Origin: an uncultured Methylococcaceae bacterium
GTDB lineage: Bacteria; Pseudomonadota; Gammaproteobacteria; Methylococcales; Methylomonadaceae
Assembly (NCBI GenBank): GCA_903903765.1
Contig: CAIVAH010000151.1
Span: forward strand, 1 to 12,527
Length of the DNA stretch: 12,527 nt
Reading direction: 5' to 3'
This document shows positions 105-12,527 of this stretch, in pieces. Within the stretch, counting starts at the first letter, position 1. Each line of letters begins with the position of its first letter. The notes under the pieces are model-generated. The model was not told where the DNA came from. It searched no databases and worked only from the letters and a program-made list of their open reading frames with translations. Both the position numbers and the translations under genes were made by a program.

Positions 105-734
105 CTAAGGCACTATTCTTTCAACGGGGTCTGAATAATTATAGATGCCCATTTTATTTGCTTCGGAACTGATTGCTGTGGCTTTAAACACTAACTTGGT
201 TTCGTGCGTCAAATTGGTAATCATACCTTTGTAACTTGATACGGTTTTGCTATGCCAGTCCGCAAGGTCTGCAGGGGCGGGTAAGGTAGAATACAGAATG
301 ATATAACCGGAGGCATGTGGCGTACTGGTAATTTCATAATTAATTTCGCCTGGGTTATTGCCAGAGTGGATGATCAAATTGGGGGCTTCTAAAATACCGA
401 CGGGTTCGGGTAGTTTTGAAATATTAAATCCTGAGCTTTCTAATTTAACTACATCATAATTGGCGGTTAAATTAACGTAGGTTGCTAAGGAGTTTAACGC
501 GTTTTCTAGGCTTAAGCGGGTGGCGTTTTTATTGGCAGTATCGGCTTTATTGCCATCATCGGCTTTAATTAAAGCCGCGTTGTAGGCTGTGATAAAACTT
601 TGGATGCTGAGTAAGGGGGGTTGTGGATTTAAGAAATTAGTATTACCCGTCATCTTGCTGAAAATGTTTTGCGCGTAGATGGTTAACTCATAATCTTTTA
701 GGTTGCTGCTGTTAATCAGTGCTTTTTGTTTCAT
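105..734 (-). CDS. Hypothetical protein with fibronectin type III-like C-terminal half
   Basis: Protein of 209 aa with no known specific function. The start is taken at ATG 734 because GAGGG lies 4 bases upstream, a good ribosome binding site. The frame stays open upstream to an ATG at 782 and a TTG at 788, but neither has a comparable site. There is no signal peptide and no membrane segment. Residues about 40-95 look helical (an Ala/Asn-rich stretch with regular hydrophobics, ending in a LATYVNL segment). Residues about 108-209 look like one fibronectin type III-type beta-sandwich: a Pro-rich entry (LPEPVG), a central Trp160, an LVFKATAIS strand, and a terminal YSDPVERIVP strand. It resembles a family of roughly 200-aa bacterial proteins with a helical region followed by an FN3 fold, whose role is unknown to me. 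It stands alone, about 500 nt from radC on the same strand. Confidence is high that it is a gene and moderate for the fold. Confidence 0.75.
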   Translation of the reverse strand: MKQKALINSSNLKDYELTIYAQNIFSKMTGNTNFLNPQPPLLSIQSFITAYNAALIKADDGNKADTANKNATRLSLENALNSLATYVNLTANYDVVKLESSGFNISKLPEPVGILEAPNLIIHSGNNPGEINYEITSTPHASGYIILYSTLPAPADLADWHSKTVSSYKGMITNLTHETKLVFKATAISSEANKMGIYNYSDPVERIVP

Positions 735-1234
735 AAATCCCTCGATAGGCCCATTCAATGGGCATGATAAATTTGAAATCATATTCAAAATTACGGTAGC
801 AAGTCAGATGAGTCTAAGCGTTACCGTTAAAGGCAGTATAGTCCTTTATGGAATAAAAACACTATAAATAATGTTTTTTATATAAATAACAATCTATTCA
901 ATATCTTAGTTGTCTTGAGCGTTACTGATTTTATAAAAAATGCTTTAAGCAAGGGTTAGCCTGTAATAAGTTGGCCTTAAGATGGTTTTAGCGAGGTTTA
1001 AGTAGAAATTAATGAGGATTCGTTTAAGGCATTTTAAACCTAGGATGGAACAAGCTAAGTTTCAGATAAAGCATACGACTATTAGGTTTAAGTTTTATAG
1101 AGCTAATCTGGTTTAAATGAATGTTACGATGGCTTATGGCCAACTTCAGATGTAGCAAGCGGGTAATGACTTGTTTCGATGTCTGTTTAGAAGATAACAA
1201 GACAGTTTATAGTCGCTCTATGAAAACAGGTTCT
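735..1234. other. Non-coding intergenic region between radC and the FN3-like gene
   Basis: About 500 AT-rich bases with no convincing gene. The only plus-strand open frame (from 1121) runs into and opposite radC and looks like a shadow. A minus-strand TATACT (835-840) could be a -10 box for the FN3-like gene, but no -35 sits at 16-18 bp. An imperfect pair of arms, ACGGTA (793-798) and TACCGT (822-827), surrounds a 23-nt loop within the probable leader of that gene. The 10-mer AGGTTTAAGT occurs twice (994-1003, 1084-1093). I see no tRNA, no mobile-element ends and no clear terminator for radC. Confidence 0.5.
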
Positions 1235-1990: not shown

Positions 1991-2470
1991 TTAAAGGCCT
2001 AATTCACTTAAACTGGCATGTTCATCCGGTCTGCGTCCTATCGGCCAATGGAACTTTCGATCTGCTTCGGTAATCGCAAGGTCATTAATACTCGCATAAC
2101 GCCGCTGCATCAGGCCGTTACTATCAAATTCCCAATTTTCATTGCCATAAGATCTAAACCATGTGTTATTGGCATTATGCCATTCATAAGCAAAGCGCAC
2201 AGCTATGCGGTCTTCAGTAAAAGCCCATAGTTCTTTAATTAAACGGTACTCTATTTCTTGAGACCATTTAAGTTCTAAAAACTCAATTATCTCAGCACGA
2301 CCGTTGATAAACTCATTACGATTACGCCATGCGCTATCTGGACTATATGCTAAGGCAATACGGTGTGGGTCTTGATTATTCCAAGCATCTTCTGCCATGC
2401 GTACTTTTTGGATAGCCATGTCGCGCGTGAAAGGTGGAAACGGGGGGCGAGCTTCAATGGAGGTGTGCAT
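1991..2470 (-). CDS. DUF1348 / NTF2-like superfamily protein
   Basis: A 159-aa soluble protein that matches, by recognisable sequence, the DUF1348 family of the NTF2-like (cone-shaped alpha+beta) superfamily. Hallmarks are the N-terminal RPPFPPFT segment (8-15), [14 protein letters not shown] (22-35), [11 protein letters not shown] (41-51), [18 protein letters not shown] (67-84), a YGNENWEF strand (108-115) and the C-terminal [14 protein letters not shown] segment (138-151). The length is typical for the family. The fold usually forms a small-molecule pocket, but no catalytic role is established for this family, so none is assigned. The start at ATG 2470 is firm: GGAG lies 6 bases upstream. 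It follows the third NuoM-like gene after only 28 nt with no terminator between, so it is probably cotranscribed with the dab operon. Such genes also occur as stand-alone genes, so a role in carbon uptake is not shown. Confidence 0.9.
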
Positions 2471-2498: not shown

Positions 2499-4043
2499 TT
2501 AGGGATTGATCAGTTGCGCGATTTCATTGCGCTCAACTTTTGTTGGCTCTAGTAAATGTGTTAACCAAGCGTCTACTGCTGTTTGGTTAATGTTAAGCAA
2601 ATAAGTGGGGGCAAAGCCTAAAGCGATAATCATTATGGCTGGGACGCAGAGTAAACCGATTTCTCGGGGCCGTAAATCATGTAGTTGGCTGACTGCTGAA
2701 CGAGTAATAGGTCCTAAGAAAGCTCTGCGCGTAAAAGACAGCATATAAGCTGCACTTAATACCGCTCCAGCTAATGCCGTAATGCCTAAACTATGGTGTG
2801 CGCTTAAGGCACCAAAAATAACTAATAGCTCTGCAGGAAAGCCACTGGTGCCGGGTAAAGCTATACTGGCCAACATAAATAAAAAATAAAAGCTGGTTAA
2901 GCGCGGCATAACACCAGCCACCCCACCTAGGTGTAAAACTTCAGTACTACCTATGCGATGTTGGATAAAGCCGGCAATCAACATCAATGAACTGGAAATG
3001 AGTGTAAAGTTAACTAATTGAAATAATGCCCCTTGTAAACCTTGTGGGGTTAATGAGGCAATACCAATTATAACTAAACCTACGTGACTGATACTGGCAT
3101 AAGCCAGTAAACGCCTTAAGTTAGTTTGTTGTGAGGCGATTAAACCCGCATAAATTAGCGTGATGGCTCCTAATATACCCAAAGCCCAACTGTATTCAAC
3201 GGCGGCGACGGGAGCTAGGGGTAAAGCAAAACGTAAAATGCCATACAAGCCTAGCTTTAAACCGATTAATAAGGCGGTCACTTGAGTAGGGCCTTCCATT
3301 GTGGCGGTAGGTAACCAAGTATGGAAAGGCACTAAAGGCGATTTGGTCGAAAAGCCTAGTAAAAATAAACTGAATACGATTAATTGTAAGGGGTCGGCTA
3401 AAGGCGTTTCTAACAGCTTAATGATGTCAAAACAGAGCGCATCCGGTAGGGAGCCGTTTATTGTAGTGGCGTGGTTTATGGCTAATAATAAAATAGCAAA
3501 TAATAACGGCACCCCACCAAATAGCATAAATAAGGTGTATTTCATAGCAGCGCTTCGGCGCTTAGGCCCGATTCCCCATAAGCCTAATAAAAAGAAGAAC
3601 GGGGGTAAGCTAAGTTCCCAAAATAAAAAGAACAGCATGGTATCAGTGGCAGTAAATACGCCAATAGTCACCCCTGCTAATACTAACAATAAAGCAAAAT
3701 GTTGGCGATGTAATTGTTGAACTGAGTTCCAACTAGCAATGATGGCACTTAAGGTTATCAAGGCTGTCATCGGTAAAAATAGGATGGAGATGCCATCAAC
3801 TCCAAGTGCGTAATTTATATTTAAGCGTGGTATCCATGCATAGTGTTCTACCAATTGATATGTGTTGCCTTCGATACTGTTAAATAAGCTTAGGGCAATC
3901 AGTGTTAGGATGCATTCAATAATGGCTGTGCCTAGGGCGAGTCTTTTTGATAGTTTTATATCAGAGACTAAGGCGGTTGCAATAGCCCCAAAGATTGGCC
4001 ACAAGATAATAACACTCAGGAAAGGGTAGTGAGTTGGACTCAT
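2499..4043 (-). CDS. NuoM-like antiporter subunit (third NuoM-type copy of the dab operon)
   Basis: A 514-aa polytopic membrane protein of the NuoM/MrpD (Proton_antipo_M) family, with about 14 predicted membrane helices. Proton-path residues of the family are present: E143 in FWELSLPP (TM5), K234 in FSTKSPLVPFHTWLP (TM7), K263 in LKLGLYG (TM8), H320 in ASISHVG and E405 in PGTSGFPAELL (TM12). One position differs: the His usually found in the later H-G-L-I motif is F346 here (VNFTLIS). It should sit in the inner membrane and move protons or sodium through the DAB-associated module; this is inferred from family and operon position. The ATG at 4043 has AAGGA about 8 nt upstream, lying inside the last codons of the preceding NuoM-like gene, with a single base between stop and start. 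Translation is therefore almost certainly coupled. No quinone or NADH-binding subunit is encoded nearby, so a true complex I role is unlikely. Confidence 0.9.
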   Translation of the reverse strand: MSPTHYPFLSVIILWPIFGAIATALVSDIKLSKRLALGTAIIECILTLIALSLFNSIEGNTYQLVEHYAWIPRLNINYALGVDGISILFLPMTALITLSAIIASWNSVQQLHRQHFALLLVLAGVTIGVFTATDTMLFFLFWELSLPPFFFLLGLWGIGPKRRSAAMKYTLFMLFGGVPLLFAILLLAINHATTINGSLPDALCFDIIKLLETPLADPLQLIVFSLFLLGFSTKSPLVPFHTWLPTATMEGPTQVTALLIGLKLGLYGILRFALPLAPVAAVEYSWALGILGAITLIYAGLIASQQTNLRRLLAYASISHVGLVIIGIASLTPQGLQGALFQLVNFTLISSSLMLIAGFIQHRIGSTEVLHLGGVAGVMPRLTSFYFLFMLASIALPGTSGFPAELLVIFGALSAHHSLGITALAGAVLSAAYMLSFTRRAFLGPITRSAVSQLHDLRPREIGLLCVPAIMIIALGFAPTYLLNINQTAVDAWLTHLLEPTKVERNEIAQLINP

Positions 4044-4044
4044 G

Positions 4045-5598
4045 TTATTTGTCCTTAGCCAACGGGATCAGCTCTAATTTTTGAGAGCTATGTTTAGGGT
4101 AATGAGCGCCAATATTGGTAGCTTCTTGGTCAATAAAGTTTAACCATGGTGTAGTGTAAAAACCGGTAATAATTAATAAAGCACAAATAATCAAGGTTAT
4201 AAGGCGCTCTTCTTTAATCGGATGATGGCTACTGTGGTAAGGTTGTTGAAAGCGTTTGGGGGTGGCAATAAACATTTGTTGAAAGGCTCTTAATAAAAAA
4301 GCCGCTGCCAGTACATTGCCTAATAATATGGCAATGGCCAATAACCAACCATCTTCCTCAATAACGCCTTCTAATAATAGATGGGCGGCATCATAGCCGG
4401 GTGTGCCAGGCATCACCATAGTGCTTAAGGCGGACACTAAAAATAATATAGCAATGGTGGCATTAGTATCAAATAAGCCGCCTAAGCGCGGAATAAAGGC
4501 GGTGCGGGTGCGCTCATAAATTAAACCGACGCTAAATAACATTCCGGCAGTGGCTAAGCCATAAGCAATGCAGAGTAATAGACTGCCCTCTAAGCCAAAT
4601 TCATTAAAGCAGAAGATGCCGATCATTAACATGCCCGTGTGACTGACTACAGAAAAAGCGAGTAAACGCCGAATATTAATTTGCATTAAAGCCAGCAATG
4701 CACCGTAAAAAATACTAATTAAACTCAAGCTTAATACGAACTGTGACCATTGTTCTGCGACCCCGGGAACTAGGGGTAAGATGAAGCGAATTACCCCGTA
4801 TAAGCCAATTTTTAAACCTACGATAAAGATAGCGCCGCTGGCAACCGTGCCTTGTTCAGCTAATAAAGGTAACCAACCGTGAAAGGGAAACAAGGGCATC
4901 CGAATGGAGAAGCCGAAGAATAATAGGATAAATATTAAGACTTCGTCATGTAAATAGGCGTTATTTTGCTTTAGGGTTAGCCAATCAAAGGTCAGGGCAT
5001 TTTCGGCATCCATTAAACCAAAGCCCAGTAACATAAAGGCCGCTAAGGTCATGATTAAACCACTTCCCCAATATTGCATTAATAGCGTGATAATCCAACG
5101 TCGGTTATTGCCCGTACCGGCGTGGCGGGTTAAGAGAATAACCGGAAGTATTTCTAGTAAGCACCATAGCCAAAACTGCATAAGATTTAAGGCACTAAAG
5201 GCGCCTATCAAGATGCCTTCATAGCCTAATAGGCAGGCAATAAATAAACGATCAGTAACATGGCGGGTAATTAAAGTGTAGGTTAATACTAGTAAAGTTA
5301 AGATGGCTGTTAAAGGGATAAATAAGATATTAGCGCCATCAACACCTACGGTATAACTTAACCAGCCTAAGTGGACTTTTTCGACTAATTGAAGGCTAGG
5401 ACTACCTGAGTTAAATATGCTTAATAAGTACAAGCTCAGTAAAGCAGTCAATAAAGTCCCGGTGAAACCATAGCGTAAGGCTATCTTATTTGAGCTAGAC
5501 AGCAAAATTCCTAACATGCTTGCTAGTGGTACTAGGGTTAATGTTGTTAGTAACGGGAATGCCGCTGTCGATGACCAATAAATAATAGGCAAGTTCAT
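4045..5598 (-). CDS. Divergent NuoM-like antiporter subunit (second NuoM-type copy)
   Basis: A membrane protein of the NuoM/MrpD family with about 14 predicted helices, 517 aa from the ATG at 5598. The open frame extends to a TTG at 5616 (523 aa) that would overlap dabB by 11 nt. I prefer the ATG because it follows the dabB stop by 7 nt and starts next to the first helix. Neither start has a clear ribosome binding site, so coupling to dabB is likely. Residue numbers below count from the TTG; subtract 6 for the ATG start. TM5 E155 (CLLEILP) and TM8 K269 (LKIGLYG) are kept, but the TM7 lysine is R239 (FSIRMPLFPFHGWLP), the TM12 glutamate is A411 (PGTPGYDAAHLL), and the usual later His is Y352. 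The C-terminal tail after the last helix is charged (KHSSQKLELIPLAKDK). These changes suggest an altered or lost proton path in this subunit, perhaps with a structural role in the module; that is inference. Confidence 0.88.
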   Translation of the reverse strand: MNLPIIYWSSTAAFPLLTTLTLVPLASMLGILLSSSNKIALRYGFTGTLLTALLSLYLLSIFNSGSPSLQLVEKVHLGWLSYTVGVDGANILFIPLTAILTLLVLTYTLITRHVTDRLFIACLLGYEGILIGAFSALNLMQFWLWCLLEILPVILLTRHAGTGNNRRWIITLLMQYWGSGLIMTLAAFMLLGFGLMDAENALTFDWLTLKQNNAYLHDEVLIFILLFFGFSIRMPLFPFHGWLPLLAEQGTVASGAIFIVGLKIGLYGVIRFILPLVPGVAEQWSQFVLSLSLISIFYGALLALMQINIRRLLAFSVVSHTGMLMIGIFCFNEFGLEGSLLLCIAYGLATAGMLFSVGLIYERTRTAFIPRLGGLFDTNATIAILFLVSALSTMVMPGTPGYDAAHLLLEGVIEEDGWLLAIAILLGNVLAAAFLLRAFQQMFIATPKRFQQPYHSSHHPIKEERLITLIICALLIITGFYTTPWLNFIDQEATNIGAHYPKHSSQKLELIPLAKDK

Positions 5599-5605
5599 GG
5601 GTAAT

Positions 5606-7168
5606 TTAAAAGGCAAGCAATAAAGTGGTTAATACGAATAACACCAAATAACGGGGTCTTAAGACTAGTAGTTCAAATTTATTAGCCGTCCGGCCTAGTT
5701 TTCTACCCATATTCAATGCATCTTTACCTATACCACGTAATATAAAGCGATCTTCAAACCAATGCATAACGCTAGCAAATCCGCTAGTTATTTTTCCTGC
5801 TATACCGCTACCATTAGTGAACGGGTTTTTAGTCTGTTCAAGGTGAGCACCGAGTAATTTTTCTTCAAATTCAGCTAAAGATGAGATGGTGTTAATCGTT
5901 GGAGTGGGTATCCCCATTAGTTGATCTAAGACATGATCATCAAAGTAACTTAAATCATGCGCGAGTCTTTTAATAGGTCTAACGAGCATCCAGTCCGCTA
6001 ATTGATCTAGCCAAAAGCGTTGGATTGAAGCGGTATACGCCCATTGAAGTTGCGAAATGTTAGGGTTAATTGGCTTGATGGGGTTGTCTTTAACCTTATG
6101 CATTAAAGACGGAGCTGATAAAAAACCATAACAACGCACAATTGCATGGGCACAGAGATGCCAGATGGCAAGTGACCAATAACCTAAGCCACATTCAACA
6201 AACATTAAGCCTAGTTGACCTGAGGTGGCGTAGGCTAAAGAGCTTTTAATATCCGTTTGAGTCAGGCCAACCCAATAGCTATGTATCGCGGTGATAGCGC
6301 CAATGACTATCAGTACTCCCATGGCGAAGGGGGATTTTTCAAACAAGGGTTCTAGCATGTATACCAAATAAACGCCGGCACTAATCATGACAGAACCATA
6401 AAATGCTGTACTTGAGGGCGTAGGTCCTTCCATTGCACGTGATAACCAAGGCGTAAAAGGTACTTGAGCTGATTTGGTAAAAGCTGCTAGGCTAAAACAT
6501 AAAGCAATCGCGGTAGCTTCACTGGTAGTGAGTTCGGTGGCATATGTAGGTAAATCTAACCAATTAGCATTACTTGTCCAGGCTAAACTTAAACTTATTC
6601 CTAATATGAAGCCAATGTCACCTAGTCTGTTAGTGACAAATACGCGTGTTGCATTTACCGTAGCAACGGGACGTTGGTAGACATAAAGGATTAATAGATA
6701 AGAACATAAGCCAGCGATTTCCCAACCAAAAAAGGTACCTATGGCATTTCCTGATAAAACCAGAAAAAGCATAGCAGCTGCAAATAAACTTAAGATAGCG
6801 AAGAAGCGATGAAAGCCAATTTCTCTGTGCATATAATTAACTGAGAACCGCATGACGATACTTAGTATCAAGCTAAAAAGTGCGGCTAAGATGATATTAA
6901 TGCTGTGGGTAATAAAGTTAATTTCTATGTTTAAATTATCACTTGTTAACCATGAGCCTAAGTTTAAACTGCCAGTGCTTTTGTGCATCAAGTCTGTAAC
7001 CAGCAGGGTCAGTGCGAGTAAGCAGGACATGTTGATAGACCAATTAGCGATAGTCGCTGTTGTAGCTTCGCTGTTCTCTCCCTCAATATATCCGGATAAT
7101 AGGCCACTAGCTATTAGAAAGGCAGCAATGAAGGGTAAAAGGGGGATTAAAACTACTAAACTATCCAT
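5606..7168 (-). CDS. dabB: DabB: shortened NuoL-type proton-channel subunit of the DAB inorganic-carbon transporter
   Basis: A 520-aa inner-membrane protein of the NuoL/DabB family. Its partner is DabA, encoded directly upstream; together they are thought to couple cation influx to CO2 hydration. E150 in FFGWEIAGLCSYLL (TM5) and K232 in AAFTKSAQVPFTPWL (TM7) are kept. In the HLCAHAIVRC motif H337 and H341 are kept, but the position that is Lys in NuoL is R345. It is shorter than NuoL (about 600 aa): membrane helices stop near residue 355, and a soluble stretch (about 365-500) follows. That stretch holds two NuoL-C-terminus-like motifs (FWLDQLADWMLVRPIKRL near 385-402, WFEDRFILRGIGKDALNMGR near 470-489). 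One hydrophobic helix (about 500-520) ends the protein, so the TM12-TM15 part of NuoL is absent. The ATG at 7168 is 3 nt past the dabA stop, with AAGG inside the dabA tail as a distant ribosome site. A generic NuoL label is the alternative, but adjacency to dabA favours DabB. Confidence 0.9.
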   Translation of the reverse strand: MDSLVVLIPLLPFIAAFLIASGLLSGYIEGENSEATTATIANWSINMSCLLALTLLVTDLMHKSTGSLNLGSWLTSDNLNIEINFITHSINIILAALFSLILSIVMRFSVNYMHREIGFHRFFAILSLFAAAMLFLVLSGNAIGTFFGWEIAGLCSYLLILYVYQRPVATVNATRVFVTNRLGDIGFILGISLSLAWTSNANWLDLPTYATELTTSEATAIALCFSLAAFTKSAQVPFTPWLSRAMEGPTPSSTAFYGSVMISAGVYLVYMLEPLFEKSPFAMGVLIVIGAITAIHSYWVGLTQTDIKSSLAYATSGQLGLMFVECGLGYWSLAIWHLCAHAIVRCYGFLSAPSLMHKVKDNPIKPINPNISQLQWAYTASIQRFWLDQLADWMLVRPIKRLAHDLSYFDDHVLDQLMGIPTPTINTISSLAEFEEKLLGAHLEQTKNPFTNGSGIAGKITSGFASVMHWFEDRFILRGIGKDALNMGRKLGRTANKFELLVLRPRYLVLFVLTTLLLAF

Positions 7169-7171
7169 TTT

Positions 7172-10100
7172 TTATCGACCTTGCAATTCAGCTTGTTTGA
7201 TTAGCATGGGTGCTACTGCTAAGGTTTGGTCTTGGTAGCAAGCGCGAGAGTTTTCTGCCATTGGGATGTCTAATGTGCTTACCCGCCAAGGCCTAAATCC
7301 ATTTTCAGGGTTAAAGATAAATATTGCTGCACTGTCAGGATCTTTAGCGATTAAATGTATCCAGCCGCCTCCGATGAGCTCCCTTAAGCTGGCTTGTTCT
7401 GTATATATACGCTCGAGCACAGTCGTTTTGGCTTCTACGATGAGTTGTAAGCGCATGGCTTCATGAATTTCTACCATTTGTTGGGGTAAGCCGGTGCGTA
7501 AATCGCTATTTGTTCCTTCCATGACGCCAAAAAATCCGGTGACATTATGAGGCACTTTAGAGCCACAGCCTAAACGTTCATTATTAACGCTAGAAAAGTA
7601 ATATTCTAGATTAATACCGGCGCCTACGGGGCCTACTGCTAATAAAATGTTCTCAAGTATTTTTCCTTCGGGATCTTGAGTCGGGTCATAAGATATTAAG
7701 AATAGGCGTCGGTCAAAAAAGGCGCCTTGTGTTAATGATCTTCTACCCACTAAAGCAGCGGCATTGGTGGCGTGGCCTAGTTCTGGACGAGCCTGAGAGA
7801 AATCCACTGCCCGTTCTTGAATATGAGCCAAAGCTTCTTTAAGGGGAGAATTTTTGGGGGCAGACGCTAAGCGTCGACATCGTTCGTGTGCTGATAGATG
7901 TTGAGCGTGCGTTAAGGCTTGTTTCAAATCTCTTAGCGGTTCTAATGCTTGACTTGGTAAAGTATCTAAGTCGTACCAACTGATTTCTTCGTTACAGGTA
8001 TTATGTTCCGCGCCTATAAACCAAGTATCGGTTGGGATATGGATGCCTTGCTCAGTTAAAAGCTGACGTATTTCGGTTCTATTGGCCATAGCCGCAAAAG
8101 CGCGCGCATTGGGGCCACCATGTCTACCACTGCAAGCGCCACAGTCGTAAGCGGCTAGATGGGGATTATTTTGGCTAATCGAGCCATGCCCCATTAACAC
8201 AACTAAGGGTGAAAATTGTTGAGTAAGACCTATATTTTTTAAGAATCCAGCGACGCGAGTGGCTTGTTCGTTATCAGTGAATCCAAGTTGCGGATGTTCT
8301 GTGCTAGCTGTGCTAAGGTCATGGCTTGCATTAATATTTAATTTAGTTTTTATAGATTGTGTAAGACCGGCACTTAGGTTTTTTAAAAAGCTATGCTCTG
8401 TGCTGGGTATTAGTGATTTTGCAATTAATCCCAATAGCGTAATGGGCGCGATGAGCATAATCAGTGGATTAGATAATAATAAATTGCGTCTTAAACTATG
8501 GTGCAAGGCATTTGCTAGTATTTTTCGGGCTTTTTTTACTTGGTTATAGCGGTTTAATTGCTGTTGATTTAAGGCGGTTTCATAAATGTTATGAGCAGGC
8601 GTGACGACGATTGGGCACAAAGGGGTTAAATGTTGGTCATCAATGCCTTGATAATTCATGGCAACGCCAAAAAACCCCGCAGCCCCAAAGGTTTCCAGTG
8701 CGGGGTTGTATTCTTCCAAATGCCTACGAAATCCTTCTTCTCTATCATCCATACAAAATATTAATTGAGCCTTTGGTGGATGATATCTTGTTTCCCAGCG
8801 ACCTCTAAGATGATTGGCGTTTAGGGTGCTTAATAAACGATCACGGTAATTAATTTCATAAGCGGTAAGCCAGATTTTATGGCGAGCTGTTTCATCAAAC
8901 TGATTGAGCACAGCTAGCATGTTTATGAGATCGGATTTGTTTAAAGCATTAACCTGATTTGGAGTCATGCCCAGATGTTGGCATAATCGGAATAAGCGCC
9001 AGCCACTGTTGTGTGCTCTATGTCCGTTATTTTGTCCGGCGATGCGATAGCATTTCCAAGTCCAGATAAGTTCGGTTAATTGTTGCCAAGCGGCGCGACT
9101 TTGTCGTTCTGGATCGGCTTTTATGGTAAGTGTTTCGGCTAACTGGGTAAGGTATTCAGGTAAGTTGCCTTTATAGAGATAAAGGCGCACTGTAAATTCA
9201 GCAAGATTTTTACGAAAATAGCTATGTAGTTTGGTTAAAGTTGCAGATGTATTCCATATTTCCATACAGACATGGTTTAACCATAACCTATCTAAAGTTA
9301 AACGTATTGCCAGGAAATCAGCTAAAGTTGGGAGAGCAAGGTTTTGGATTGTGTAATTGGGATGGTGTTGCCGCCAATTAATCATGCCAGCCCAGCCAGG
9401 AATTTCGAGTGCTAAGCGCTTTAAATAAACTGACCAGTTTTGTTGAGGTATTTCAAGTTGTGTGAGTTGCAAGATGATTGTATCTATCGCCGTCTCTGGG
9501 AGTTCTGTTAAGGCTTGTTGCCAATTAGGAAGTTCATGTAAAAATGGATTAGCGTCATATTTCAATGTGGCACGCCAAGACGAATATAAACCTAAGTCAT
9601 GATTTTTTGGTTTTTTCCATGAAGCTACTCCTTCATCTAAATCAGAGGCACAGAATTTGATCAGTTCTGGCCTAACTGATTCAAGTATATCAACGCCAGT
9701 TAATTTAAGAATAAGGTCTCTTAGTGTTAAGGGTGCGCCAATTTGTAAAAATAAATCGTCAAGAGCCTTGGTGTCATTGGTTTCTTCACCTAAGCGTTGC
9801 TCTTGATTTGGTTTGAAGGATACGTAGTTGGCTAACCATTCTTCGGCTTGTTCTAAGGATAGATCAAGTAGATCTTCTGGATGTAAAGTGGTTTCTTGTA
9901 TATCTAGTAGTTCTACAATACGATTCCATAATTGTTTAATTGCCGAATTTTTAAGGGGGTCGTTTCTAAATATTTCCGCCTGAATAAGACTAGGTACATC
10001 TTTTTGCACGGTGTTTAAAGCGTCTAATTCATCGTTTTGCCACTTTAACTCACTCATAGTGAGCGTTTTAAAGTCGAATAATAAAGCGAGTTGATAAAGT

Positions 10101-10435
10101 TCTTTTCTAGTAATGATTCGGGTATCTATTTGGCAGACCACCTGCTCGGCTTCTAGCAGTGGATTTTCAGCAAGAGCGAGGCTGATATCACCATCCGTAA
10201 TCCGGTTTTGTTGATAGAAAAATCGGCTTTTGGATTCGGGTAAATAGGCATTGATACCGGTAAGCTCTTTAAATTCAGCTAAGGCTTGTTCAAAGGGTAG
10301 GTGCTGAAATCCATGCAGGGTATTGTGATGCACAAAGTTAAGGATGGGTGCTTGTGCAGGTAAAACGGTATCTAGCTCTGCTAAGATTGCGGCTATTTCG
10401 TTGCGTTGTTGTATTGTAATGGCGGGTATGTGCAT
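7172..10435 (-). CDS. dabA: DabA: zinc-site subunit of the DAB inorganic-carbon transporter (UPF0753/DUF2309)
   Basis: A 1087-aa protein of the DabA family, distantly related to beta-carbonic anhydrases. It is thought to sit on the cytoplasmic face of DabB and convert CO2 to bicarbonate. The zinc-site residues are recognisable: C561 and D563 in IFCMDDREEGFRRH, H750 in LMGHGS, and C765 in YDCGACSGRHGGPNARAFA. The 15-residue spacing of His to Cys matches what I recall for Halothiobacillus DabA2 (C351, D353, H524, C539). The N-terminal signature ILNFVHHNTLHGFQHLPF (31-48) is typical. A hydrophobic stretch at about 651-677 may dip into the membrane. The protein is about 250 aa longer than Halothiobacillus DabA2 and belongs to the long form known from other sulfur oxidisers; the extra sequence lies N-terminal to the C-x-D motif. 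The ATG at 10435 is 5 nt after the upstream NuoM stop and has no clear ribosome site, suggesting translational coupling. The function is strongly supported by family, and transport of CO2 rather than another substrate follows from it. Confidence 0.93.
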   Translation of the reverse strand: MHIPAITIQQRNEIAAILAELDTVLPAQAPILNFVHHNTLHGFQHLPFEQALAEFKELTGINAYLPESKSRFFYQQNRITDGDISLALAENPLLEAEQVVCQIDTRIITRKELYQLALLFDFKTLTMSELKWQNDELDALNTVQKDVPSLIQAEIFRNDPLKNSAIKQLWNRIVELLDIQETTLHPEDLLDLSLEQAEEWLANYVSFKPNQEQRLGEETNDTKALDDLFLQIGAPLTLRDLILKLTGVDILESVRPELIKFCASDLDEGVASWKKPKNHDLGLYSSWRATLKYDANPFLHELPNWQQALTELPETAIDTIILQLTQLEIPQQNWSVYLKRLALEIPGWAGMINWRQHHPNYTIQNLALPTLADFLAIRLTLDRLWLNHVCMEIWNTSATLTKLHSYFRKNLAEFTVRLYLYKGNLPEYLTQLAETLTIKADPERQSRAAWQQLTELIWTWKCYRIAGQNNGHRAHNSGWRLFRLCQHLGMTPNQVNALNKSDLINMLAVLNQFDETARHKIWLTAYEINYRDRLLSTLNANHLRGRWETRYHPPKAQLIFCMDDREEGFRRHLEEYNPALETFGAAGFFGVAMNYQGIDDQHLTPLCPIVVTPAHNIYETALNQQQLNRYNQVKKARKILANALHHSLRRNLLLSNPLIMLIAPITLLGLIAKSLIPSTEHSFLKNLSAGLTQSIKTKLNINASHDLSTASTEHPQLGFTDNEQATRVAGFLKNIGLTQQFSPLVVLMGHGSISQNNPHLAAYDCGACSGRHGGPNARAFAAMANRTEIRQLLTEQGIHIPTDTWFIGAEHNTCNEEISWYDLDTLPSQALEPLRDLKQALTHAQHLSAHERCRRLASAPKNSPLKEALAHIQERAVDFSQARPELGHATNAAALVGRRSLTQGAFFDRRLFLISYDPTQDPEGKILENILLAVGPVGAGINLEYYFSSVNNERLGCGSKVPHNVTGFFGVMEGTNSDLRTGLPQQMVEIHEAMRLQLIVEAKTTVLERIYTEQASLRELIGGGWIHLIAKDPDSAAIFIFNPENGFRPWRVSTLDIPMAENSRACYQDQTLAVAPMLIKQAELQGR

Positions 10436-10440
10436 ATTAT

Positions 10441-11922
10441 TTATAACAGACGCTGGCTTATTTGGTTAATCATAGTATTAATAGTCGCGGCTGATAACTC
10501 TATGACTGGGCTAGGTATTAAACCTAAGCCGATGATGCTGATAACTAAAATCCCGGCGGCCAGTTGTTCGCGTCCGTTTAAGTCGGTTAAGTTGAATTTG
10601 TTGGCTTTATCTGGGCCTAGTAATAATAAGTTGATGCTGCGCATTGCGTAGGCTGCGTTAATCAGTACAGTGATGCTAAACAATATCATTATTACGCCCC
10701 ATTGTTGAAAGCCACCCATTAACGCATGAAGTTCTGCGATAAATCCAAAGGTACCGGGCAGTCCCATGGCGCCTAATAAAGCTAAGCTAATGAATAAGGC
10801 AAAGCGGGGCATGCTATGGATTAATCCGCCGAAGTCTTGTATGTTTCGAGTATGAGTGCGCTCATACAGTAAGCCAACTAATAGAAAGAGTGCGGCAGAG
10901 ATTAAGCCATGTGCGGTCATTTGTAATACGGCACCGGTTAATCCCATTTGATTTAAACTGGCAATACCTAATAACACAATGCCCATGTGGCTAAATGAAG
11001 AATAGGCAATCATGGCTTTTAGATCGGTTTGTCGCCATGCTAATAGGCCACCATAAATCATGCCGAATAGGGCTAGGGAAACTAATACGGGTTGCAGGAT
11101 GTGAACTGCTTCAGGAAGCATGTTAACCGCTCTAATAAGACCATAAGCACCCATTTTTAATAGCACGCCGGATAATAGAATGCTCACTGGGCTAGGTGCT
11201 TCAACATGCGCTAAGGGTAGCCAACCATGTAAGGGAAATATTGGCATTTTTACCCCAAAGCCAATTAAAAAGCCTAATAGAACCAATATTTGTTCATTTC
11301 TTGGCATGTCTTTAGCGGCTTGATGCATGGTAGACATCAAAGATCCCGCTTGTTGTAAGTCATATTGACTGATGGCGAGCAAACTCATCAGCATAAATAC
11401 TGAGCCAACCATGGTATAAAGTACAAAATTTAAACTCGCGGCGTGGCGGCGTTTACCACCCCATCGACCAATGAGGAAGAATAAGGGGATTAAGGTAAGC
11501 TCCCATGCTATATAAAATAGTGCCCAATCCTGCGCTAAAAAAACCCCTAATAAGCCAAATTCCAATAATAAGATGCTCAAATAATAGCCTTTAACATTCT
11601 CAGTGCGAGGGTAAGAAGCCAGTAAAGCAATAGAGGTAAGTAGAGTTCCTAACAGCAACATGGGCATTGAGAGCCCATCGACTCCTAAAGCATAAGCACT
11701 GCCTAGATTAGGGTTGAGCGGGAAATATTCATTAAATTGCAGTTCGGCAGTGTTTTGTTGATAAAGGTGCAGTATCCAGAAACTTAGTAATAGCGTTATG
11801 GTGGAGAAAAAGTTGGCGATAATGCGAATAGCTTGGGTGTTTTGATTAGGTGCAAAAATTAACACGAGAACGCCTAATGCGGGTGTCCAGAGCAGTAAAC
11901 TGAGAATGCCCATCTGATTCAC
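10441..11922 (-). CDS. NuoM-like antiporter subunit (first gene of the dab operon)
   Basis: A 493-aa NuoM/MrpD-family inner-membrane protein with about 14 helices, the most canonical of the three NuoM-like copies. All family proton-path residues are present: E141 in AWELTLIPLFFLIG (TM5), K225 in GFGVKMPIFPLHGWLP (TM7), K256 in LLKMGAYGLIR (TM8), H312 in SSFSHMG, H338 in TAHGLISAALFLLVG and E397 in PGTFGFIAEL (TM12). By sequence alone it could pass as a subunit of a complex I. However, dabA follows 5 nt after its stop and no other nuo genes are present, so it is better read as part of the DAB module. The first possible start is a GTG at 11922, with an ATG three codons on (11913). Neither has a strong ribosome binding site (an AGG lies about 11 nt before the GTG). 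It follows the minus-strand promoter at 11965-11992 and is probably the first gene of the transcript. Confidence 0.9.
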   Translation of the reverse strand: MNQMGILSLLLWTPALGVLVLIFAPNQNTQAIRIIANFFSTITLLLSFWILHLYQQNTAELQFNEYFPLNPNLGSAYALGVDGLSMPMLLLGTLLTSIALLASYPRTENVKGYYLSILLLEFGLLGVFLAQDWALFYIAWELTLIPLFFLIGRWGGKRRHAASLNFVLYTMVGSVFMLMSLLAISQYDLQQAGSLMSTMHQAAKDMPRNEQILVLLGFLIGFGVKMPIFPLHGWLPLAHVEAPSPVSILLSGVLLKMGAYGLIRAVNMLPEAVHILQPVLVSLALFGMIYGGLLAWRQTDLKAMIAYSSFSHMGIVLLGIASLNQMGLTGAVLQMTAHGLISAALFLLVGLLYERTHTRNIQDFGGLIHSMPRFALFISLALLGAMGLPGTFGFIAELHALMGGFQQWGVIMILFSITVLINAAYAMRSINLLLLGPDKANKFNLTDLNGREQLAAGILVISIIGLGLIPSPVIELSAATINTMINQISQRLL

Positions 11923-11964: not shown

Positions 11965-11992
11965 ATTATACGGAGCGAGCATTAATTGGCAA
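11965..11992 (-). promoter_or_regulatory. Sigma70-type promoter of the dab operon
   Basis: Read on the minus strand: -35 TTGCCA (11987-11992, five of six consensus bases), a 16-bp spacer, and -10 TATAAT (11965-11970, perfect). Transcription would start near 11958, giving a leader of about 36 nt before the GTG of the first NuoM-like gene. It is the only strong promoter I see for the whole minus-strand gene block. Confidence 0.65.
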
Positions 11993-12067: not shown

Positions 12068-12527
12068 ATGTTACGAGTTAGTAAGTTAACAGATTATGCA
12101 ACAGTCATATTAAGTCTAATGGCTAAAGAAAACACGCAGGTTCGTACTGCGGTGGATTTAGCAGCAGTGACTGGGATTGCAATACCGACGGTTAGCAAAA
12201 TATTAAAGCTTTTGGTGAATGCAAAGGTATTAATTTCTACTCGGGGTGCTAAGGGTGGCTATGCCTTAGCTAGAAGTCCTGAAGCGATCACTATCGCCAA
12301 CGTGATTAGTGCTTTAGAAGGGCCGATTGCTTTGACTGAGTGCAGTATTTCTCAGCAGGGTTGTGAGCAAGCTTCTGGTTGTGATATTAGGGGGAATTGG
12401 CATTTAATTAATCGAGCCATTCATGATGCCTTAGAGTCAGTCACGTTGGCTGATATGATTAAACCGACTGCTACGCATGATTTAGCATGGAAATCAGAGG
12501 TTTTCATTCCCGTAGCCAGTTTATATC
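12068..12527 (+). CDS. Rrf2-family SUF-type Fe-S cluster assembly regulator (partial, 3' end outside the window)
   Basis: 153 codons are visible with no stop before the window ends; family members are usually about 150-165 aa, so little is missing. Residues 1-70 are the winged-helix DNA-binding domain: LRVSKLTDYATVIL (2-15), recognition-helix region IPTVSKILKLL (39-49), and wing STRGAKGGYALAR (57-69). The motif ALEGPIALTEC (82-92) and three cysteines (C92, C99, C105) are placed as in [2Fe-2S]-binding Rrf2 proteins (IscR and SUF-type). The segment RGNWHLINRAIHDAL (108-122) is typical of the proteobacterial SUF-system regulator, whose gene usually precedes sufB, sufC, sufD and sufS; those would lie beyond the window. 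It is transcribed divergently from the dab operon and shares a 145-bp intergenic region with it. It may autoregulate through the palindromes near its promoter; any effect on dab is speculative. Confidence 0.92.
   Translation, partial: MLRVSKLTDYATVILSLMAKENTQVRTAVDLAAVTGIAIPTVSKILKLLVNAKVLISTRGAKGGYALARSPEAITIANVISALEGPIALTECSISQQGCEQASGCDIRGNWHLINRAIHDALESVTLADMIKPTATHDLAWKSEVFIPVASLY

What the first reader, a model, noticed from the sequence alone, without database searches (positions are those of the whole stretch)
2499..11922. Expanded DAB operon: DabA with one NuoL-type and three NuoM-type subunits
The characterised DAB transporter needs only dabA and dabB. Here five tightly packed, probably translationally coupled genes encode DabA plus four antiporter-family subunits, with no electron-input genes of complex I. 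This suggests a larger membrane module in which several ion channels may be joined to one CO2-hydrating subunit, comparable in logic to cyanobacterial NDH-1/CUP CO2-uptake complexes or a multi-subunit Mrp antiporter. The gene content is seen directly; the complex is inferred.
Basis: partly seen in the sequence, partly recalled or inferred. Interest (0 to 1): 0.75.

Follow-up and report, generated by a model that had tools for sequence, protein, structure and literature searches.

The report
Five-gene bacterial CO2-uptake pump operon
A bacterial gene set that probably turns incoming CO2 into bicarbonate with the cell's ion gradient carries three extra channel-like proteins besides the known two, in the same gene order in distant bacteria, and its usual channel partner has lost part of itself, so the five proteins probably work as one larger machine.

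Summary
Five same-strand genes, spaced +5, +3, -11 and +1 bases, encode M1 (NuoM-like), DabA (1087 aa), L (NuoL/DabB-like), M2 and M3 (NuoM-like).

The set is conserved. Loci picked by DabA alone gave a group of 98 DabA. Of the 67 rows with all four partners as separate genes, 66 read M1-DabA-L-M2-M3. Hosts include methanotrophs, nitrifiers, sulfur oxidisers and Magnetococcales. L and M2 are fused in six loci (five genomes). In the seven genomes where the cluster is split, the missing partners were found elsewhere.

L is a DabB relative without the hydrophobic helices after TM11 (none in 77 of 82 rows; four in 60 of 71 two-gene DabB). The finger glutamate essential in DAB2 is absent in 98 of 98 DabA. 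M1 and M3 keep the core NuoM channel residues; M2 has lost two in every row. So it cannot work exactly like two-subunit DAB2.

None of 15 sampled genomes of this family has a full-length complex I NuoD, so the NuoM copies there are not complex I parts.

NuoM genes beside dabA were noted in print in 2017. I found no description of the five-part architecture in the library searched. The complex itself is inferred.

The parts
10441..11922 (-). M1: NuoM-type subunit, 493 aa, first gene; all core NuoM channel residues kept
   Evidence: residues in 87 of 87 distinct M1 rows; own clade next to NuoM
7172..10435 (-). DabA, 1087 aa: zinc site kept (C561, H750, C765, D563, R565); His888 where DabA2 has Leu658; no Glu at the finger column
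5606..7168 (-). L: DabB relative, 520 aa, like NuoL up to TM11; helices TM12-15 missing, last hydrophobic helix at 498-521
4045..5616 (-). M2: degenerate NuoM-type subunit, 523 aa (TTG start; an ATG lies 18 bases downstream); fused to L in Competibacter-type genomes
   Evidence: E144 and E407 absent, K234 is Arg, in 77 of 77 distinct rows; fusions
2499..4043 (-). M3: NuoM-type subunit, 514 aa, last of the five; core channel residues kept except H348 (Phe)
   Evidence: 69 of 69 distinct rows
11965..11992 (-). Promoter-like site 42 bases or more upstream of M1 (TTGCCA, 16, TATAAT; best match of the window)
   Evidence: consensus match only, and the window holds fewer such sites than its shuffles

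Best explanation
The operon encodes one five-subunit membrane complex, an enlarged DAB-type vectorial carbonic anhydrase. DabA hydrates CO2 at a buried zinc site on the cytoplasmic side. L is a DabB whose exit half (TM12-15) is gone, so it acts as the joint between DabA and the channels rather than as a complete channel. M1 and M3 are complete NuoM-type channels, and M2 is a degenerate linker next to L. Inward ion flow, probably of protons, through M1 and M3 is passed along the row to L and the DabA finger and drives CO2 to bicarbonate one way. Shown: gene set, order, fusions, residues kept and lost, loss of helices by hydropathy. Inferred: one complex, direction, ion, stoichiometry, positions of the subunits.
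For: Order M1-DabA-L-M2-M3 in 66 of 67 complete rows across several orders. L-M2 fused in six loci, five genomes. In all 8 incomplete unfused-or-split loci (7 genomes) the missing partners lie elsewhere in the genome. L lost TM12-15, and the finger Glu is gone in 98 of 98 DabA, so the exit path of DAB2 is missing on both sides. M1 and M3 keep all core channel residues. Zinc ligands and Asp-Arg dyad kept in 97 or 98 of 98. Best solved relative of DabA is DabA2, E 3e-76. SbtA-family genes within the flanks of 5 of 97 loci and SulP or carboxysome-type carbonic-anhydrase-like neighbours in others.
Against: No direct evidence of a complex or of activity. A shared operon does not prove contact. The three two-gene, dabA-first relatives share His888, Glu566, L-type E144, Tyr254 and Arg342 and also lack the finger Glu, so these changes do not require M subunits; one of them, L197, also shows no late hydrophobic segments, in a short tail (88 residues) that I did not check. 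41 of 98 DabA have Asp at the finger column. The carbonic-anhydrase-like neighbour is as common near other DabA (14 of 84) as here (14 of 97). In DAB2 replacing Leu658 did not impair function (PMC13144422), so the His may matter little.
Confidence: 0.6

Rival explanations
1. Two modules in one operon: DabA-L works as an ordinary two-subunit DAB, and M1-M2-M3 form a separate ion antiporter or channel that is merely co-expressed.
For: Two-subunit DAB2 is sufficient in H. neapolitanus (PMC13144422), and genomes such as L080 and L207 have the set split over two places.
Against: L lacks the late helices in 77 of 82 rows and the finger Glu is missing. L, not DabA, is what stays with M2-M3 in the split genomes G426 and G427, and L is fused to M2 in five genomes. 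M2 is unlikely to be a channel by itself.
Confidence: 0.2
2. The M proteins are alternative subunits of respiratory complex I.
For: All are PF00361 proteins, and M1 lies next to NuoM with modest support (SH-aLRT 83).
Against: 0 of 15 sampled genomes of this family has a full-length NuoD match; 6 of 35 handles with the five-gene type lack one and the other 29 have complex I in addition. M1, M2 and M3 form clades of their own. Note that Methylobacter marinus (G439) does have a full-length NuoD.
Confidence: 0.03
3. The complex runs the other way or on another substrate: a reaction at DabA drives ions outward, or bicarbonate is moved together with sodium, as proposed for MpsAB.
For: The outward idea was put forward in PMC5700660. 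PMC13144422 reports a Na+/HCO3- symport proposal for MpsAB. SbtA and SulP genes nearby fit sodium as well as protons.
Against: The zinc site and Asp-Arg dyad of a carbonic anhydrase are kept, and CO2 hydration by itself yields too little energy to pump ions outward (general knowledge, no call). M1 and M3 have the Glu of complex I NuoM in TM12, where MrpD has Lys (PMC7419157, passages).
Confidence: 0.15

Closest known systems
DAB2 (DabA2-DabB2) of Halothiobacillus neapolitanus, PDB 9rd0, PMC13144422
   Same: PF10070 subunit with the same zinc ligands and Asp-Arg dyad; NuoL-like partner gene next to it; hydrophobic finger region kept
   Different: Three more NuoM-type subunits; L lacks TM12-15; finger Glu444 not kept; Leu658 is His and Ser356 is Glu; dabA lies upstream of the L gene
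COG3002-NuoL-NuoM gene clusters ('clade C' of PMC5700660)
   Same: dabA-type gene upstream of a nuoL homologue with NuoM genes nearby: very likely includes this type
   Different: The paper reports frequent neighbours only; no fixed five-gene order, residue changes or shortened L in the parts read (1 and 2 of 3; supplement not seen)
Respiratory complex I membrane arm (NuoL, NuoM, NuoN)
   Same: Several antiporter-like subunits; M1 and M3 keep the NuoM channel residues; L keeps the E144/R175 and D178/K229 pairs
   Different: No redox subunits, no NuoH, J, K or N; DabA instead; L is cut short; M2 degenerate
Mrp Na+/H+ antiporter
   Same: Several antiporter-like subunits without redox subunits
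   Different: No small Mrp genes in the window; TM12 Glu instead of Lys in M1 and M3
Cyanobacterial NDH-1MS/CUP CO2-uptake complexes
   Same: Idea of CO2 hydration coupled to NuoL/NuoM-type subunits
   Different: Those are driven by ferredoxin oxidation (PMC13144422); here there is no electron-input gene, and the soluble subunit is DabA

Membership tests
DabA (PF10070) | Match to the curated family model | tested here: met
   E 3.4e-250, 833 bits, cut-off 25
DabA (PF10070) | Zinc ligands Cys2His and Asp-Arg dyad | tested here: met
   C561, H750, C765, D563, R565 in the window; 97 or 98 of 98 in its group
Two-subunit DAB of the DAB2 type | Finger glutamate (Glu444) | tested here: not met
   No Glu in 98 of 98, Met in the window; Glu in 72 of 76 other DabA. 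Alignment is weak there
Two-subunit DAB of the DAB2 type | Leu at position 658 | tested here: not met
   His in 98 of 98; Leu in 73 of 76 others
Two-subunit DAB of the DAB2 type | DabB with helices after TM11 (15 TM in DabB2) | tested here: not met
   No hydrophobic segment there in 77 of 82 L rows; four in 60 of 71 two-gene DabB
DAB systems | Gradient-driven CO2 hydration and rescue of a carbonic-anhydrase mutant | not testable with these tools
   needs an experiment
Complex I / NDH-1 | Redox and quinone subunits encoded with it | tested here: not met
   None among the window's ORFs of 80 aa or more; no NuoD match in this 80% complete genome; 0 of 15 in the family with a full-length match
Mrp antiporter | Small subunits MrpB, C, E, F, G beside the large ones | tested here: not met
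   No such ORF of 80 aa or more in the window
Cyanobacterial NDH-1MS/CUP | CupA or CupB hydrating subunit | not tested
   No Cup model was searched by name; the only Pfam match of the soluble subunit is DabA
DAB multi-subunit type proposed here | The five proteins form one complex | not testable with these tools
   only indirect: order, fusions, retention when split

The most novel reading that the evidence does not exclude
An obligate five-subunit, redox-free vectorial carbonic anhydrase in which DabB is cut down to an entry half-channel and joint, while two intact NuoM-type channels and a degenerate one supply the ion flow. Using more than one ion per CO2 would allow steeper bicarbonate accumulation than two-subunit DAB. 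The catalytic site carries a His where DAB2 has Leu and beta-carbonic anhydrases have Gln or His.
Probability: 0.5. Interest if true: 0.82.

Novelty: new variant of a known kind. Interest (0 to 1): 0.64.

Why it matters
If true, it is a complex-I-like membrane arm coupled to CO2 hydration instead of electron transfer, in ecologically central bacteria (methanotrophs, ammonia and nitrite oxidisers, sulfur oxidisers, Magnetococcales). It would give a redox-free system for the long-standing question of how a row of antiporter subunits passes energy to a distant active site. It would also mean that annotating these genes as spare NADH dehydrogenase subunits is misleading, and it offers a candidate stronger bicarbonate pump for engineered CO2-concentrating systems.

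Tried and rejected
Complex I parts: rejected for this lineage. Uniqueness to this genome: rejected. A strict tie to RuBisCO: rejected (22 of 35 handles have it; handles G199 and G428 are one genome, without it). His888 and L-type E144 as marks of the five-gene state: dropped, because the two-gene, dabA-first systems L192, L197 and L211 share them. Carbonic-anhydrase-like neighbour as evidence specific to this type: dropped, 14 of 97 loci against 14 of 84 other loci. Fold search with the DabA model: nothing at E <= 0.001, although the sequence search finds DabA2. Fold comparison of L: NuoL-type chains; DabB2 was not among the rows shown, which proves nothing. The DabA-Mrp hybrid of L132: only in its own genome among 61 of its order, where 11 had any match and the others were 36-45% identical. 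Ten paper searches listed no description of the five-gene set; the library holds open-licence PubMed Central papers only, and I did not see the 2019 paper that introduced DAB (recalled) or the supplement of PMC5700660.

Counts: several printed counts hold the window or another row twice (89, 79, 70, 82 and 75 rows). One search repeats them on distinct sequences (87, 77, 69, 80 and 74). One search was not repeated: its 82 L rows include the window twice and its 8 NuoL rows include E. coli twice.

Full report
WHAT IS THERE. The window is contig 151 of a 1.92 Mb assembly in 328 contigs, 80% complete. Five minus-strand ORFs run from 11922 down to 2499: M1, DabA, L, M2, M3, spaced +5, +3, -11 and +1 bases. 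DabA is PF10070, the other four PF00361. The nearest named relative, an uncultured Methylococcaceae assembly (L039), has the same operon, with DabA 87% and M1 97% identical; that this genome is a methanotroph of the Methylococcales is inferred from such names. The genome has a second, two-gene DAB on contig 58 (DabA 850 aa, DabB 629 aa). Apart from that DabB, the four proteins here are its only PF00361 matches.

CONSERVATION. Loci were chosen by DabA alone. A tree of 174 DabA of at least 700 aa (172 different; six shorter frames left out) holds a group of 98, in 97 loci, that includes all 90 rows labelled as having M genes nearby (local support 93 for that split, 100 for the split of 97 just inside). 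Of the 98, 67 have all four partners as separate genes on the locus, 22 are cut by a locus or contig end, and 9 are incomplete although the flanks are long enough. Of the 67, 66 read M1-DabA-L-M2-M3; the other row is the second DabA of Thiothrix L111, whose cluster reads M1-DabA-L-DabA'-L'-M2-M3.

THE INCOMPLETE NINE. L092 has every part, with L and M2 fused. L088, L093, L158 and L159 also carry the fusion (about 1040 aa; a sixth, L090, is cut by the contig end; L088 and L159 are one genome). For the eight loci other than L092 (seven genomes) the missing partners were found elsewhere in the same genome: L-M2-M3 together for L059 and L080, M1 for L059, L158, L088/L159 and L093 (for L093 and L088/L159 M1 also lies on or at the edge of the locus), L and M2-M3 for L181, M1-L-M2-M3 for L207 (L208), and M3 for L158 and L088/L159 (L216 and L215). 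The M3 of L093 is called only from its score to M1, which is in the range of other M3.

BREADTH. By record title or the labels, hosts include Methylococcales, Nitrosomonadales (Nitrosomonas, Nitrosospira, Nitrotoga), Thiotrichales, Acidiferrobacterales, Competibacteraceae and Magnetococcales. M2 at E <= 1e-60 was found in 36 of 398 genomes sampled from the phylum. It is not universal near home: the complete same-family genome G249 has neither DabA nor a NuoM-like match.

ORIGIN OF THE SUBUNITS. In a tree of 107 proteins M1, L, M2 and M3 are each one clade (SH-aLRT 100, 100, 100, 97). L groups with the contig-58-type DabB (98; those two are long branches) and with other DabB (84). M2 and M3 are sisters (97). 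M1 lies next to NuoM (83). Pairwise identities over 62 loci correlate at r 0.87-0.94 between the five proteins, as expected for genes inherited together; M1 is the most conserved (mean 64%), M2 the least (51%).

DabA RESIDUES. Zinc ligands C561, H750, C765 and the dyad D563/R565 are kept in 97 or 98 of 98. The place of Leu658 of DabA2, reported as strict in 150 homologues and standing where beta-carbonic anhydrases have Gln or His (PMC13144422), is His888 in 98 of 98, against Leu in 73 and His in 3 of 76 others. Ser356 is Glu566 in 98 of 98; of the others 73 have Ser and 3 Glu. The three exceptions are the two-gene, dabA-first systems L192 (contig 58), L197 and L211, so both changes mark a wider group than the five-gene type. 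[quoted passage not shown] The column of the finger Glu444, essential in DAB2, has Glu in 72 of 76 others and in none of the 98 (Asp 41, Asn 14, Ala 14, Thr 8, Leu 7, others 14; Met in the window). The region aligns weakly; 47 of 98 have some acid between 652 and 669, against 73 of 76 others. The AF2 model of DabA (mean pLDDT 77) has helices 624-650 and 652-675 there.

CHANNEL RESIDUES. On distinct sequences (repeating), against E. coli NuoM: M1 keeps E144, K234, H241, K265, H322, H348, E407 in 87 of 87; M3 keeps all but H348 (Phe) in 69 of 69; M2 lacks E144 and E407 and has Arg for K234 in 77 of 77, but keeps H241 and K265. L keeps the NuoL pairs E144/R175 and D178/K229 (79 or 80 of 80), with Tyr for H254 and Arg for K342. 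Two-gene DabB have E144 in 3 of 74, exactly the three dabA-first ones.

NOT COMPLEX I. In the 15 sampled genomes of this family, this one included, no NuoD match is full length; the few matches there (about 1e-31) cover part of the profile and are probably hydrogenase-like, which is my reading. Among 35 handles with the five-gene type, 6 lack a match above 300 bits and 29 have one in addition to the operon, Methylobacter marinus included.

CONTEXT. In Nitrosospira sp. NpAV an SbtA-family bicarbonate transporter gene and a gene with a carboxysome-shell carbonic anhydrase domain flank the operon; in several Nitrosomonas a relative of the latter follows M3 on the same strand (for L073 just under the family cut-off). 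SbtA-like genes occur in 5 of 97 loci of this group and 2 of 84 others. Sulfurimicrobium has a SulP-type gene upstream. RuBisCO was found in 22 of 35 handles; not in this genome or in the Methylococcales handles G426, G427, G429, G431 and G439, but in G136 of the same order. A supply of bicarbonate for other carboxylases is my inference for these methanotrophs.

MECHANISM. Reported for DAB2: gradient-dependent hydration by a zinc site, tied to proton flow through DabB and the finger (PMC13144422; introduction, results and discussion read). Inferred here: M1 and M3 carry the ions, M2 and the shortened L connect them to DabA, and more than one ion per CO2 may be used. I put about 0.75 on one complex, 0.8 on an inorganic-carbon role and 0.5 on M1 and M3 being the working channels.

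PRIOR WORK. PMC5700660 (parts 1 and 2 of 3 read) reported in 2017 that COG3002 genes upstream of a nuoL homologue often neighbour NuoM and sulfate-permease genes, and suggested that more membrane subunits may mean more ions. PMC13144422 mentions one-, two- and three-gene systems in the sections read. PMC7419157, PMC10714799 and PMC9080137 were seen as passages; other papers only as listings. Hence a new variant of a known kind.

Noticed in passing
L132 (G025:C1:73800-93700), 1074-12981, minus strand: A SulP gene, a 950-aa DabA and a set of Mrp-type genes (MnhE, MbhD/E-like, MnhB, an Oxidored_q2 subunit, an MnhD-like one) plus NuoL- and NuoM-like genes stand in a row on one strand: a possible DabA-Mrp hybrid. 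No second close copy among 61 genomes of its order.
   Followed up: partly
L111 (Thiothrix sp. STA_22), 8442-23114, plus strand: Duplicated core: M1-DabA-L-DabA'-L'-M2-M3, suggesting that DabA and L are copied as a pair.
   Followed up: partly
G000:C58 (L192, 8553-12991, plus strand): The same genome has a second DAB with only dabA and dabB, dabA first, which shares His888, Glu566 and the missing finger Glu with the five-gene type but keeps the late DabB helices.
   Followed up: partly
window 1991-2470 (-) and 12068-12526 (+): A DUF1348 (SnoaL-like) gene 28 bases after M3 and a divergent Rrf2-type regulator upstream of M1 recur in 7 of 97 loci of this group, the window and six Methylococcales (DUF1348 in 0 and Rrf2 in 1 of 84 other loci). 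Perhaps a lineage-specific sixth gene and a regulator.
   Followed up: partly
L073:17038-18120, L048:18060-19178 and other Nitrosomonas/Nitrosospira loci: A roughly 360-aa protein with a partial carboxysome-shell carbonic anhydrase domain lies beside the operon in nitrifiers and also near other DabA types (14 of 97 and 14 of 84 loci).
   Followed up: partly
L088, L090, L092, L093, L158, L159: In Competibacter/Contendobacter-type genomes L and M2 are one reading frame of about 1040 aa.
   Followed up: yes
window 105-788 (-): A 227-aa ORF without a Pfam match.
   Followed up: no
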